Shown here: positions 739 to 25,806 of the stretch, in pieces
Layout of the letters: each line of letters opens with the position of its first letter
Position numbering within the stretch: position 1 is the stretch's first letter
Assembly: GCA_027604185.1 (NCBI GenBank)
Contig: JADGKB010000155.1
Coordinates: 1 to 25,806, forward strand
Reading direction: 5' to 3'
DNA from: Boothiomyces macroporosus
Lineage: Eukaryota; Chytridiomycota; Chytridiomycetes; Rhizophydiales; Terramycetaceae
Length of the DNA stretch: 25,806 nt
Program-made: the position numbers and the translations under genes
Notes under the pieces: generated by a model
Told to the model about the DNA's origin: nothing
The model's input: the letters and a program-made list of their open reading frames with translations, nothing else
Database searches by the model: none

Positions 739-1357
739 ATGTTTCAGGTAGATACCAGACAAGAACCACAATTTGGAAGAAGCTGCGGAGGAGTGCTTTT
801 CCCATTGATACCATCTCTATTGTAAAGCATTATTTACCTAGACACCCAATGTTGATTCTAGAAATTAAATTTCAGGAGGACAAAACGGAAGAGCAAGTAC
901 ATTACTGCCTTAAATTAGTTGCAAAATATAAATATCATATGTCATTTAAGTTTGGTTTATCCAAATGATTCCACACACAGAAATTTTGCAAAATTTCCAA
1001 AGCGGATAGATGTGAATTTGAATGGAGAACTGTGTATACCTCCAACAGTTTTAACGGATCCGGTGGATGGAAAGAGAAAGTTGTTTTTTGTATTTAATGA
1101 TGTTGGAATCGTTTACCCAGGATATTATTCCCTGGAGTGCAGAATAATTGATATGGAAACGTAAAATATCATTAACAAGGCTTCACTACCAGCAGGTTAT
1201 AACGAATGAATTCCAAATATATTCCAAGAGGGATTTCAGAAAACCTAAAGATATCTCCCAGTTACAGAAATCATTTGAAATACAAGGAATTTGCGACAAG
1301 AACAGCAACAGGTACAAGCGAGAAGTATTAAACATCAAAGCTCTCGAGTCCCCTTGA
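739..1357 (+). CDS. Small velvet-domain protein (paralogue A)
   Basis: Spliced exons are 739-821, 842-896, 919-1160 and 1180-1357, giving 185 residues; the three introns are 20, 22 and 19 nt. The protein is essentially one velvet domain. It begins with an RQEPQFGRSCGG stretch, matching the family DNA-contact motif RQxPxxARxCG near the N terminus. It continues with a strand like the family's PIVQL region (HPMLILEIKF), then LTDPVDG, KLFFVFNDVGI and a C-terminal KSFEIQGI, matching the family's FFVFxDLSI and LSxxFAxQGxKI blocks. Velvet proteins are fungal regulators of development and secondary metabolism that act as dimers in the nucleus. The start at 739 places the motif near the N terminus, as is usual. 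The gene lies in tandem with a paralogue at 2363-2985 that has the same intron positions and phases. An AATAAA lies 34 nt after the stop. The partner and target genes are unknown. Confidence 0.82.
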
Positions 1358-1391
1358 CGATGCCAAAAAATATTTCCAATCAACTCACTAT

Positions 1392-1397
1392 AATAAA
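1392..1397 (+). terminator. AATAAA poly(A) signal of velvet gene A
   Basis: AATAAA lies 34 nt after the stop codon of the first velvet gene. It is the most distant such signal in this window; most others overlap or touch the stop codon. Confidence 0.5.
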
Positions 1398-1632
1398 TAG
1401 GATCAGATCACCAGTATTTACCATTTCCAATATATGGTAACCCACAGAAAGTAGCAGATCTAAAAGGGGGAGACCTACTGACCCAAACGATTAATCCCTA
1501 CGTAGCAAGATGATAACAATTCGACCGACAGTGATTTAGAACTTTCGGCAACTCTTTTCATTCCCACAGATAATTATAATTGTCCCATTTTATCGACTTT
1601 AATTAAATTTGGCTGCAAATTTTTGTGCAAAA

Positions 1633-1683
1633 TTGGTTGATGGATCAGCACAAATGCATAGCAAACTGACCCTGATCAACCAA
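1633..1683. repeat. Imperfect inverted repeat
   Basis: The left arm at 1633-1648 (TTGGTTGATGGATCAG) pairs with the right arm at 1672-1683 (CTGATCAACCAA), leaving a 3-nt bulge in the left arm. The loop is about 23 nt. The stem would hold 12 base pairs. It lies in the spacer between the velvet genes and could be a regulatory or transcribed hairpin, or chance in AT-rich DNA. Confidence 0.45.
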
Positions 1684-22684: not shown

Positions 22685-22685
22685 A
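22680..22685 (+). terminator. AATAAA overlapping the IRE1 stop
   Basis: The hexamer contains the whole TAA stop at 22682-22684. Cleavage would occur inside the convergent STE23 coding end. Confidence 0.6.
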
Positions 22686-22697
22686 AGTAATATTACA

Positions 22698-25600
22698 TTA
22701 TTTATTACATTTAATCCAAGTGGAAATATCGGCGACTGGCCGAGCGATATCATTCAGTTGAAGTTTTGATTTAAATTCGTGCAAGGTATCGTCATTAATA
22801 AATATGGCATTTTTCAACAGATTATCTTTCTCATTCATTTCCTGTGCCAATTTACTTTTCATATGTACAGACAACTTTTTCCTTTTTGGTGAGGAGGATG
22901 AAAAGTAGTCCTTGTAAAACTGATGGAGATCCTGCTTTGAAATTTGATTTATATGATGGATATCGTCGTGATGTTGATCAAAGTCATAGTATTGAGAAGT
23001 AATGCATCCCCATAATTTTGTAGATTCCTGGTGCAAGTTTTGGGATTTTTCCTGTAGCTGGAGAATAACTGATGACTTATAACTTTCAAGATCTTCATCT
23101 TCCAGCTCCAAAATTATTTGCTATATTACGGATTGAATACCTCAAGTTTTTCAATAAAGTTTTCGATCCTACTTTCCAAATATCTCGGAGACTTTTCGCT
23201 CTGAACTATTATCCTAAAGGAAATCATCTCTGCCTGCTTTCGGATCCCAGTATACACCATATAGCCTATTTAAGTTTCTGATTACCTAACTGTTCCTTGG
23301 TTCGAAGTCGATCAAATGCGTGTTCCTGACTAATTTGGGTAATAAGGGTTAACAGTGATCGTAAACTTGAGTTGGCTAATGAACCTATCTGTAAACAAAA
23401 TTCAATTGCAGAGTTGACATTCTGATCATTGAACAAATCTTTGGTATATACTATATTGGACCCTGGATTAGATTTGTATTACCTTCTTCAAGCATGTGCA
23501 CTCTAACGTATAAGGATTCTTTATCGTCTAAAGGGCTATATTGAAAATGAGATATCAAGTTTTCACAATATTCAAGTGCGGTCGAATGTGAAGTATTTCC
23601 ATGAACAAATCCCTCCACAAAACCACTTTCAAATATATGGCTACTAAATTCTTTTAATTCATAAAAGGAAATGGTTTCTAGTTCCCTAAGCTTTTCACCT
23701 GCTGAATACAGCTTTTCTTGTGTGACAAAAGAGACAAAATACATGGCATGGGAATAAGGTGCAATTTGGAACCAATTGAGGGTTTTCTTTCGTAGCTAAT
23801 ATAAGAAGGACGTACCTGATCTTTGATGATATCAAATCGACTTTTGTTTACGGAAAACTGGCTCATTTTTTTGCCAATATTATTCAGTAATACCGGAAGC
23901 TTATCGCTATATCCTCCAACCGTTAAAGTCAAGCTTTCTGTAGTGCATTCCAATGTGTATGATAATCCTGCGACTTCAGCATGGTACGAGTATTCATTTA
24001 GAGAATCCATCACCATCATCTTGTACAAAGTCATCAAAATATGATCTCTAGCTGATTGATAAGCTCTATGAGTTTTAAATTCAAAGAATGCAAACGATTT
24101 TGGTATTCTGAACTTATCTATCGTAAATCAATACTATACCTTCTTGTAGGTGCCAAAACCGAACACGTTCACTTTCTTTTATAATCAGTGGAGTTGAATG
24201 GCTTCCGTGAGGGAGAATATCTAGCTTTCGAGGTATGAATTGATTTTCTTGGGGTAGAGATAATTGGGAATTAAAAGACAGACCTTTTATCTTTCTTACA
24301 AACTCTCTGGAAAAGGATTCCACTTTGTATTCCGTCCCATACCATTTACTTTTCAACCACCCTGAGGTATCAAATTCTGGTGATTCCAACATAATAAGGC
24401 AGTTATTCACCCTTAAATACTCTAAACATTTACCAATCGTGTCAGGATCAAAAATTCGCATCAAAAACTTTCCAGAAAGCACATATCCTGCTTTAAAATT
24501 ATGTAAATCTCCTGCGAGAGCTGAAGTATAGGTGGAAGCTGAGGCTGGCGTCTCCATGAATTTGAAATGTAATTCATTAATTGCTTTACACTAGAATTAG
24601 TTAAAGTGCACCTCTAGGAATGCCCAAAGCTGTGGACCTTTTGCCTTTAACATCATTATATATTGAAAAATTATTTCTATTATTCCTTCTACATTTTCTT
24701 GATTAGCGATAATTACCTGACCCAAGACGTGTCATTTCAACTGAAATATTAAAGAACTCAAAATCTGTCGCTCCAAATCCAGATATACTGCTAGTTAGAT
24801 TTAAAGCCCATCCTCTAGATTTTAGGAGCGACAAAACAGAGCCGGATCCTTCATGGCCAATAAAGTGTGAAATATAGTACAACGGCTGAAGATTAAAACC
24901 GATTACTTTTGAAAGAAAATTGGGTAAATGATTTTTACACGGGAAAAGCAATGACAGATTTCTTCTTTCTTTTATGGGTTTGATTTTTACAAGTTTCTGA
25001 ATTAGTCAAAAAACCTACCATCAGCTCATTTGAAGTGTATGGGTGCGCTGGAAATGATGGCGGTTCGATTTTCTTGTTTTTGATTCCGGAAAACATCCTG
25101 ATTGCAAGGTCTGTAAGTTCGCCCACGGACTCTTTTCCCAGTATCACCAGTTTCATTATGTTTGAGCTGTAGTATGTGTCGTGAAAATCCAGCAGCACCT
25201 GTCGCACATCCAGTCCCTTTCTGAGCGGTATGTCTCTCAGCGTCTCCAGATTCCCTGACCTTAGCAACCGCCTACCTGTGCCAAACTTTCGGAATGGATG
25301 CGCTAGCGACGACAAGTCCTTTAGCAGCTGGTATCCCCTCCACGTATCGGATTGCAGGTTCTTTTTGTGTTCTACTGTAAGAGGTCGTGTACCAGAATCC
25401 ACTGCTAGCATTTCCCGCTCTGTGCAGCTGTCCAGGAACAAGGGACACTTGAAGAAGCTGGAGAATCGGTCCAGCGCTCCCTCCAAGTATTCCGACGATA
25501 TTTCAAAGTAATAGTCTATATTAGCCACTCGTACTGGTGTGGTCGCTCGAAGTGAACGCATTCGAGTGTCCGCCGTGCTCTGCCAGGAACTGCTGTTAGT

Positions 25601-25806
25601 GCAAACTACTTTTCTGTATTCACTCTCCTCTGGATACTAGGATTAGCGCCAATTACTTTTTCCGTCCCCATAAACAGCAAATGCTCACAAAAGTGCGCTA
25701 GTCCGGCCACATCGTCGGGGTCGCTCAAGTGTCCTACATGAACATCCAGTGCTGCCGATGATTTATCCGTTTTTGGGTCTGATATCAGCAAAACCTCCAA
25801 TTCATT
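22698..25806 (-). CDS. STE23: Insulin-degrading enzyme/Ste23-type M16 zinc metalloprotease (5' end missing)
   Basis: Fifteen exons on the minus strand: 25657-25806, 25610-25636, 25535-25589, 25393-25515, 25276-25371, 25019-25254, 24907-24996, 24717-24885, 24612-24697, 24140-24590, 23816-24117, 23483-23795, 23286-23462, 23141-23265 and 22698-23120. They encode 940 residues; only a short N terminus lies beyond the window. The family degrades small peptides; yeast Ste23 helps mature a-factor. The inverted zinc motif HFCEH is at 25682-25696, followed by [15 protein letters not shown]. The third zinc ligand, Glu in AVDSEHKKN, is coded across the intron at 25372-25392. Downstream are [32 protein letters not shown] and, in the C-terminal half, [12 protein letters not shown]. 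Fourteen introns are 19-22 nt; three of them are 21 nt and free of in-frame stops. One exon is only 27 nt. An AATAAA abuts the stop. Confidence 0.96.
22701..22706 (-). terminator. AATAAA abutting the STE23 stop
   Basis: The last two sense codons on the minus strand are AAT AAA, followed directly by the TAA stop at 22698-22700. Confidence 0.6.
24886..24906 (-). other. Stop-free 21-nt intron in STE23
   Basis: Phase-0 GT-AG segment ending TTAATCTTCAG. Removing it joins LPNFLSK to [13 protein letters not shown], as in related proteases. If retained it would add seven residues without a stop. Confidence 0.7.
25255..25275 (-). other. Stop-free 21-nt intron in STE23
   Basis: Phase-1 GT-AG segment ending GCTAAGGTCAG. 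Removing it restores KFGTGN, the conserved family sequence; retaining it would put seven extra residues after KFGTG. Confidence 0.8.
25372..25392 (-). other. Stop-free 21-nt intron splitting the zinc-ligand Glu codon of STE23
   Basis: Phase-1 GT-AG segment inside the codon for the Glu of AVDSEH, equivalent to human IDE Glu189. Splicing gives exactly AVDSEHKKN; retention inserts seven residues just before a re-created Glu. The branch-like element is CTTAC; an alternative AG three bases upstream would add one Val. Confidence 0.8.

What the first reader, a model, noticed from the sequence alone, without database searches (positions are those of the whole stretch)
739..25806. All 58 reconstructed introns are 19-23 nt long
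Nine genes need 58 introns to give intact, family-consistent proteins. Their lengths are 19 (10), 20 (25), 21 (13), 22 (7) and 23 (3); no longer intron was needed. The 5' ends are mostly GTA, often GTAAT or GTAC. A CTAAY/TTAAY/CTGAY element lies just before the final AG, so donor, branch site and acceptor nearly touch. Known spliceosomal introns this short are very rare: chlorarachniophyte nucleomorphs (about 18-21 nt) and the ciliate Stentor (15-16 nt). A fungus with an intron-rich genome of this type would be remarkable and implies a spliceosome adapted to minimal substrates.
Basis: partly seen in the sequence, partly recalled or inferred. Interest (0 to 1): 0.9.

Follow-up and report, generated by a model that had tools for sequence, protein, structure and literature searches.

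The report
Chytrid fungus with twenty-base introns
A free-living soil fungus appears to interrupt its genes with introns only about 20 bases long, near the shortest known, and seems to remove them with an ordinary-looking splicing machine, so it could help show how small an intron can get.

Summary
Orthologous proteins aligned to three of the genes, with introns of 10-400 nt equally cheap, gave 815 of 855 introns at 19-23 nt over 83 queries; with two queries dropped after a first look it is 828 of 875. The host is the chytrid Boothiomyces macroporosus. A 285-kb sample of its genome shows the same peak, 318 of 388 predicted introns, with a likely tail to 24-25 nt. The putative branch A mostly sits at nt 14-16, 5-6 nt before the end. 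U1, U2 and U6 carry canonical recognition sequences; Prp8, SF1, U2AF and Cwc25 are present, and Cwc25 appears to keep the plug reported missing in Stentor. So an 'adapted spliceosome' is not supported so far. Tiny-intron genomes are known in nucleomorphs, heterotrich ciliates and mikrocytids; ten literature searches showed me no fungal report. No RNA data were available: splicing is inferred.

The parts
739..1357 (+). Velvet-factor gene 1 (185 aa); introns 822-841 (20), 897-918 (22), 1161-1179 (19)
   Evidence: Pfam Velvet 54.9 bits; open after splicing
2363..2985 (+). Velvet-factor gene 2 (186 aa); introns 2449-2471 (23), 2527-2545 (19), 2800-2819 (20)
   Evidence: 40% identical to gene 1; Pfam Velvet on a shorter model
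2995..6049 (-). VPS11 (929 aa; RING-like C-terminus by eye); 13 introns: 5757-5776 (20), 5662-5681 (20), 5564-5583 (20), 5382-5401 (20), 5219-5239 (21), 4911-4931 (21), 3878-3896 (19), 3769-3788 (20), 3672-3693 (22), 3409-3427 (19), 3219-3238 (20), 3163-3185 (23), 3058-3077 (20)
   Evidence: each recovered by 14-28 of 28 orthologue queries with no length preference
6081..6869 (+). MTR3-like RNase PH family protein (242 aa); introns 6361-6379 (19), 6668-6687 (20), 6777-6797 (21)
   Evidence: Pfam RNase_PH and RNase_PH_C
9041..12716 (+). gamma-tubulin complex component (1170 aa); introns 9158-9176 (19), 9285-9304 (20), 9821-9840 (20), 10029-10050 (22), 10229-10248 (20), 10656-10674 (19), 10901-10923 (23), 12053-12072 (20)
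   Evidence: Pfam GCP_N_terminal and GCP_C_terminal
12733..18964 (-). LAA1/HEATR5-like protein (2028 aa); introns 18611-18632 (22), 18319-18339 (21), 18091-18111 (21, GC-AG), 16570-16590 (21), 14799-14817 (19), 14547-14566 (20), 13294-13314 (21)
   Evidence: each recovered by 19-27 of 28 orthologue queries; NCBI protein P0001 differs at one intron and the 3' end
19189..19704 (+). cytochrome b5-like protein (157 aa); introns 19325-19346 (22), 19479-19498 (20)
   Evidence: Pfam Cyt-b5 39.5 bits
19892..22684 (+). IRE1 kinase/RNase (889 aa); introns 20093-20112 (20), 20230-20250 (21), 20453-20472 (20), 21492-21512 (21), 22196-22215 (20), 22484-22504 (21)
   Evidence: aligns with solved Ire1 chain 3fbv_A through the last three junctions without a gap there; Pfam kinase and Ribonuc_2-5A
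22698..25806 (-). STE23/insulysin M16 peptidase, 5' end beyond the contig (947 aa held); introns 25637-25656 (20), 25590-25609 (20), 25516-25534 (19), 25372-25392 (21), 25255-25275 (21), 24997-25018 (22), 24698-24716 (19), 24591-24611 (21), 24118-24139 (22), 23796-23815 (20), 23463-23482 (20), 23266-23285 (20), 23121-23140 (20)
   Evidence: each recovered by 20-27 of 27 orthologue queries

Best explanation
The 19-23 nt segments are ordinary U2-type spliceosomal introns shrunk to about the size of their own signals. Shown here: GT(GC)-AG ends; a YTRAY-like motif whose A mostly lies at nt 14-16 and 5-6 nt before the intron end; open frames in nine genes after their removal, with orthologue support in three of them; the same length peak in a 285-kb genome sample; major-spliceosome parts with canonical U1, U2 and U6 recognition sequences. 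Inferred: that they are excised from RNA by this spliceosome through intron definition; that donor, branch site and acceptor are read as one unit of about 14-17 bits; that U1 and the U2 snRNP take turns on so short a piece; that the narrow range is a floor set by the distance from 5' splice site to branch A (14 nt) plus the distance to the AG (5 nt). The genome belongs to Boothiomyces macroporosus, a chytrid isolated from soil on pollen.
For: 58 introns and nine open coding sequences. 815 of 855 introns at 19-23 nt from 83 orthologue queries with 10-400 nt equally cheap; 30 of 30 control runs with false dinucleotides score lower than the GT-AG run of the same query and give scattered lengths (the GT runs could also use GC at extra cost). 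Flat-prior codon model: 122 of 225 GT-AG introns at 18-24 nt against 19-33 of 188-232 for six controls. Unsupervised motif search on the 33 homology-set introns, chosen without any motif, finds nYTAAY with A at nt 14 or 15 in 28 of 33. Census: 258 of 309 introns have the A 5-6 nt from the end, 200 shuffles mean 37, maximum 54. snRNAs, Prp8, SF1, U2AF2, U2AF1, Cwc25. NCBI's models of two genes use ten introns of 19-22 nt out of eleven.
Against: No RNA evidence. Census introns were scored with a motif learned from short introns, so their statistics are partly circular; the 33-intron set is the clean one. 70 of 388 census introns lie outside 19-23 nt (9 shorter, 61 longer); the 12 of these in the window are not in the final models, the other 58 were not checked one by one. 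In one search a 26-nt intron (5710-5735) was used by 6 of 28 VPS11 queries, a 33-nt one (18079-18111) and a 15-nt one (13294-13308) by 4 and 3 of 28 LAA1 queries, and a further 21-nt one (24886-24906) by 4 of 27 STE23 queries. Terramyces P0003 needed five introns of 45-265 nt and P0122 one of 102 and one of 10 nt; I blame the gene models of that species, unproven. U5 not found (uninformative). Isy1 N-terminus unclear.
Confidence: 0.88

Rival explanations
1. The spliceosome is visibly re-engineered for minimal introns, as proposed for Stentor (loss of the Cwc25 plug, changed Isy1 N-terminus, avoidance of a clash with the tight lariat).
For: Isy1's first ~36 residues do not align with the solved chains shown; +5 G of the donor is rare, 9 of 58.
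Against: Cwc25 has MGGGDLNLKKSWHP as in chain 5yzg_X, though the frame stays open upstream of that Met for at least 30 codons, so the start is inferred; U1 5' end, U2 GUAGUA and U6 ACAGAGA are canonical; the Prp8 held aligns over residues 6-2228; SF1 and U2AF kept. Only a few of the spliceosomal proteins were looked at.
Confidence: 0.2
2. Tiny introns dominate but ordinary-length introns also exist in the genome, so the distribution is strongly skewed and not exclusive.
For: Introns of 24 nt (SF1) and 25 nt (eS10, family recognised from memory) look real; 61 of 388 census introns are longer than 23 nt and some could be genuine.
Against: With the flat-prior codon model GT-AG shows no excess at 25-80 nt over false pairs: 83 against 140-183 in six controls. 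The Prp8 model uses five introns of 19-22 nt (where 15-30 nt were allowed) and the protein aligns in one stretch.
Confidence: 0.25
3. The segments are removed by something other than the spliceosome (DNA elimination as with ciliate IES, ribosomal bypassing, IRE1-type cutting).
For: They are far shorter than the fungal mean lengths in the survey passages I saw, for example 63 bp in Cryptococcus (PMC8476143, passages).
Against: GT-AG ends, a branch motif at a nearly fixed distance, and a major spliceosome in the genome. I did not test for IES-like features.
Confidence: 0.03
4. Artefact of gene modelling: indels, pseudogenes or over-splicing of 3n segments.
For: Ciliate workers found that some ultra-short annotated introns are insertions relative to orthologues (PMC5014332, passages); 4 of 58 could stay in frame without a stop.
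Against: 54 of 58 break the frame or carry a stop; most orthologue queries prefer removal of three of the other four.
Confidence: 0.03

Closest known systems
Chlorarachniophyte nucleomorph introns (18-21 bp; PMC10245619 section 7 read)
   Same: Narrow range, nearly the same length, numerous (more than 800).
   Different: A relict endosymbiont nucleus with a reduced genome; here a free-living fungus and a 15.2-Mb assembly.
Stentor coeruleus and other heterotrich ciliates (15-16 nt; PMC9505925, passages)
   Same: Tiny introns throughout, GUA donors (commonest intron begins GUAAUU), canonical U1 and U2 recognition sequences, U2AF listed as present, free-living.
   Different: Stentor branch A mostly at nt 10 and Cwc25 reported without its plug; here branch A mostly at nt 14-16 and the plug present.
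Mikrocytids, M. mackini and P. canceri (16-17 nt; PMC10245619 section 7 read)
   Same: Extremely short introns of uniform length.
   Different: Parasites with a reduced spliceosome (17-19 proteins) and 224 introns in M. mackini; here about 1,000 per Mb by extrapolation.
[quoted passage not shown] PMC5014332, passages)
   Same: Only ultra-short introns; 3n introns of Paramecium often carry in-frame stops, as 9 of 13 do here.
   Different: Longer and broader range (25-45 bp for Paramecium in another passage); ciliates.

Membership tests
U2-type spliceosomal introns | GT-AG (or GC-AG) ends | tested here: met
   57 GT-AG and 1 GC-AG of 58; GT/GC and AG were required in the models, so the test is that false pairs do worse
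U2-type spliceosomal introns | Branch-site motif near the 3' end | tested here: met
   nYTAAY found without supervision, A at nt 14-15 in 28 of 33
U2-type spliceosomal introns | Major-spliceosome snRNAs with matching recognition sequences | tested here: met
   U1 AUACUUACCUG (68.8 bits, just under Rfam's 69.5), U2 GUAGUA, U6 ACAGAGA; U5 not found, uninformative; U4 not searched
U2-type spliceosomal introns | Excision from pre-mRNA as a lariat | not testable with these tools
   no RNA data
Genomes with only ultra-short introns | Genome-wide narrow length peak below about 25 nt | tested here: met
   318 of 388 predicted introns at 19-23 nt in 285 kb of 15.2 Mb; a sample, scored with a learned motif; without motif 120 of 225 in 225.8 kb
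Genomes with only ultra-short introns | No ordinary-length introns | tested here: inconclusive
   No excess of 25-80 nt GT-AG over controls, but 24-25 nt introns look real and rare long ones cannot be excluded
Stentor-type adapted spliceosome | Cwc25 without the glycine plug | tested here: not met
   first 14 residues identical to chain 5yzg_X, taking the Met at MGGG as the start; upstream frame open
Stentor-type adapted spliceosome | Non-conserved Isy1 N-terminus | tested here: inconclusive
   residues 1-36 not aligned, but the model needs a 1-nt exon

The most novel reading that the evidence does not exclude
A largely unmodified fungal spliceosome runs an intron-rich genome on ~20-nt introns, so the lower size limit of a conventional spliceosome is a 14-nt loop from the 5' splice site to the branch A plus 5 nt to the AG; going below this, as Stentor does with a 10-nt loop, is what requires erosion of the Cwc25 plug. 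On such introns U1 and the U2 snRNP cannot sit side by side, so the 20-mer is recognised as one unit and handed from U1/SF1/U2AF to U6/U2 in sequence.
Probability: 0.3. Interest if true: 0.85.

Novelty: new member of a known kind. Interest (0 to 1): 0.7.

Why it matters
It would add a free-living fungus with an ordinary nucleus to a short list of tiny-intron lineages made up of relict nuclei, ciliates and parasites. It separates two questions that were confounded there: how short an intron can be, and whether the spliceosome must be changed for it. It also has a practical side: the public models P0001 and P0241 of this species go wrong at tiny introns, and P0002 of a sister strain ends at the same place, so comparative studies that use such proteins lose exons.

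Tried and rejected
Tried without result: the 18S family search of the own genome failed five times and was dropped; identity came from proteins instead. U5 by Rfam gave nothing, with silent controls. My first codon-only gene models mixed true introns with long false ones, and I first took the LAA1 gene for Gcn1; both were corrected. DNA of related chytrids, which would show whether the trait is shared by the family, is not held; only their proteins could be used. Considered and rejected: modelling artefact, non-spliceosomal removal (see rivals).

Rows left out: for I left out of the LAA1 list P0001-P0003, P0005, P0006, P0010 and P0018, of the STE23 list P0121 and P0122, and of the VPS11 list P0241, P0260 and P0261, and used the next hits down to P0035, P0149 and P0271. 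P0003 and P0122 had shown long introns before I left them out; with both counted the total is 828 of 875. P0001 and P0241 were run apart at a lower intron cost (ten of eleven introns at 19-22 nt, one of 45). The other eight were not run. The decoy count used an earlier 43-intron model of the window, so a few decoys may in fact be introns; there 8 of 262 decoy windows scored above the 10th percentile of real introns, 3 above the 25th, none above the median. The census used the window, the 20 stretches of 10 kb and 16 of the other loci; 12 more fetched loci were left out as overlapping, identical (L041) or not taken. The Cwc25 query is the model without its first 43 residues, cut at the Met where the solved chains begin.
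Full report
Identity. The window is contig C155 (25,806 bp) of a 15.2-Mb, 216-contig assembly. A protein search with the reconstructed LAA1 protein returned an NCBI protein of Boothiomyces macroporosus, identical over the region compared, on a contig of exactly that length (P0001); VPS11 did the same (P0241). The species is a chytrid, order Rhizophydiales, family Terramycetaceae; three listed cultures come from soil or water on pollen (PMC11210171, passages).

The observation. 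All nine coding sequences are open to a stop codon (STE23 begins beyond the contig). A tenth gene-like ORF (6905-8593) was called without introns and has no Pfam match. Donors: 57 GT, one GC; +3 is A in 51 of 58; acceptors TAG 34, CAG 18, AAG 4, GAG 2.

Not chance, and not chosen by expectation. First, a gene finder that knew only codon usage, with every intron length from 12 to 80 nt equally cheap, run on the window and 20 x 10 kb, found 225 GT-AG introns, 122 of them at 18-24 nt (56 at 20 nt); six false dinucleotide pairs gave 188-232 introns with 19-33 there (3-9 at 20 nt). Second, I aligned orthologous proteins to the DNA of three genes with a splicing dynamic program that lets introns be 10-400 nt at one flat cost and ignores all motifs but GT/GC and AG. 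Over 83 queries (38-84% identical in the aligned codons) 815 of 855 introns were 19-23 nt, and 33 recur (LAA1 7, STE23 13, VPS11 13). All 30 control runs with false pairs scored below the GT-AG run of the same query. A few other introns recur in a minority of queries (15, 26 and 33 nt, and one more of 21 nt; see evidence against). With two queries dropped after they had shown long introns the figure is 828 of 875. Third, the solved Ire1 chain 3fbv_A aligns through the last three IRE1 junctions with no gap there. Fourth, NCBI's own models for LAA1 and VPS11 use ten introns of 19-22 nt and one of 45; they go wrong elsewhere, one ending inside the 21-nt intron 13294-13314 and one losing the frame at 3878-3896.

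Genome. In 285 kb of sampled sequence a model with a learned splice motif and lengths of 14-60 nt gave 388 introns, 318 at 19-23 nt, 9 shorter, 61 longer. The 12 of these outliers that lie in the window are not in the final models; the other 58 were not checked singly. A 24-nt intron in SF1 and a 25-nt intron in ribosomal protein eS10 (family recognised from memory) look genuine. From (224 introns of 18-24 nt in 225.8 kb) I extrapolate roughly 15,000 in the genome, probably low because stop-free 21-mers are missed.

Anatomy. An unsupervised motif search on the 33 homology-set introns, selected with no motif, finds nYTAAY with its A at nt 14 or 15 in 28 of 33. By a simple motif score the A is at nt 14-16 in 51 of the 58 window introns and 5-6 nt from the end in 44. 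In 309 core census introns it is 5-6 nt from the end in 258, against a mean of 37 (maximum 54) for 200 shuffles of the interiors; that set was picked with a motif, so it is supporting evidence only. Four combinations, (14,6), (15,5), (14,5) and (15,6), make up 234 of 313. So length is mostly the sum of two nearly fixed distances. Position-wise information sums to 14-17 bits, and none of 262 decoy GT-AG windows of 19-22 nt in the same genes reached the median of real introns. There is little room for a pyrimidine tract between branch and AG; T makes up 41-48% of nt 5-11.

Machinery. U6, U1 and two U2 genes were found. U1 begins AUACUUACCUG, U2 carries GUAGUA, U6 ACAGAGA. U5 was not found, with silent controls; U4 and the minor spliceosome were not searched. 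The part of Prp8 that I hold (2,228 residues; the 3' end lies beyond the fetched stretch) aligns in one stretch with solved chains, for example 3jcr_A, and its model has five introns of 19-22 nt. SF1, U2AF2 (best match of the family model, 230.7 bits against a cut-off of 310.3, read exon by exon) and U2AF1 are present, themselves interrupted by tiny introns. Cwc25 has MGGGDLNLKKSWHP, identical to chain 5yzg_X there; the frame is open for at least 30 codons upstream, so that this Met is the start is an inference from the solved chains. Stentor is reported to lack the glycine plug (PMC9505925, passages). Isy1 is present, but its first ~36 residues do not align with the solved chains and my model needs a 1-nt exon there, so I draw nothing from it.

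How it most likely works. Shown: the segments have the ends, branch motif and spacing expected of U2-type introns, and the genome has matching spliceosomal parts. Inferred: they are removed by that spliceosome through intron definition. Because a U1 footprint and a U2-bound branch site would overlap or nearly so on 14 nt, I infer a hand-over and not joint occupancy. The narrow distribution then reads as erosion against a floor: 14 nt to the branch A and 5 nt beyond. Mikrocytid authors argue in a similar way for a balance of deletion bias and functional minimum (PMC10245619, section 7).

Compared with what is known. Nucleomorph introns (18-21 bp) are the nearest in length, heterotrich ciliates (15-16) in lifestyle, mikrocytids (16-17) in uniformity, Paramecium around 25 bp. 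The difference is the host: a free-living fungus with U2AF, SF1 and, as far as I can tell, an intact Cwc25 plug. [quoted passage not shown]

Novelty. In ten searches of an open-licence library (only the listed top of each result was seen) I saw no report of such introns in a fungus. Four papers hold both 'Boothiomyces' and 'intron'; in the two that I looked into, by passages, the words are unrelated. Most subscription journals and preprints are not in that library. The introns are already implicit in public gene models, so this is an unremarked rather than a hidden feature, as far as I could search.

Verdict. Observation confirmed; new member of a known kind; the claim of an adapted spliceosome is not supported by what could be tested.

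Noticed in passing
18091-18111: A GC-AG intron of 21 nt in LAA1; NCBI's model has a 45-nt intron there and lacks eight residues of my model. U2AF1 (L046) seems to have another GC-AG intron of 21 nt near its start codon, read by eye.
   Followed up: partly
13294-13314 and 3878-3896: Public gene models P0001 and P0241 go wrong at these introns; the model of Boothiomyces sp. JEL0838 (P0002) stops at the same place as P0001, which hints that the intron is shared within the genus.
   Followed up: partly
739-1357 and 2363-2985: Two neighbouring Velvet-factor paralogues, 40% identical, each with three tiny introns; the third intron is in a corresponding place by eye.
   Followed up: partly
L044:1083-1160 (Isy1, C39): The in-frame model found places two 20-nt introns around a 1-nt exon.
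   Followed up: no
L040 and L041 (C49 and C100): The 3,111-bp stretches around Cwc25 on two contigs are identical: a recent duplication or an uncollapsed assembly.
   Followed up: no
6905-8593: A 562-codon ORF without introns and without a Pfam match, with repeated LLSPQL-like motifs, between MTR3 and the GCP gene.
   Followed up: no
C80:60682-60874 and C178:9607-9797 (L027, L028): Two U2 genes of differing sequence in one genome.
   Followed up: no
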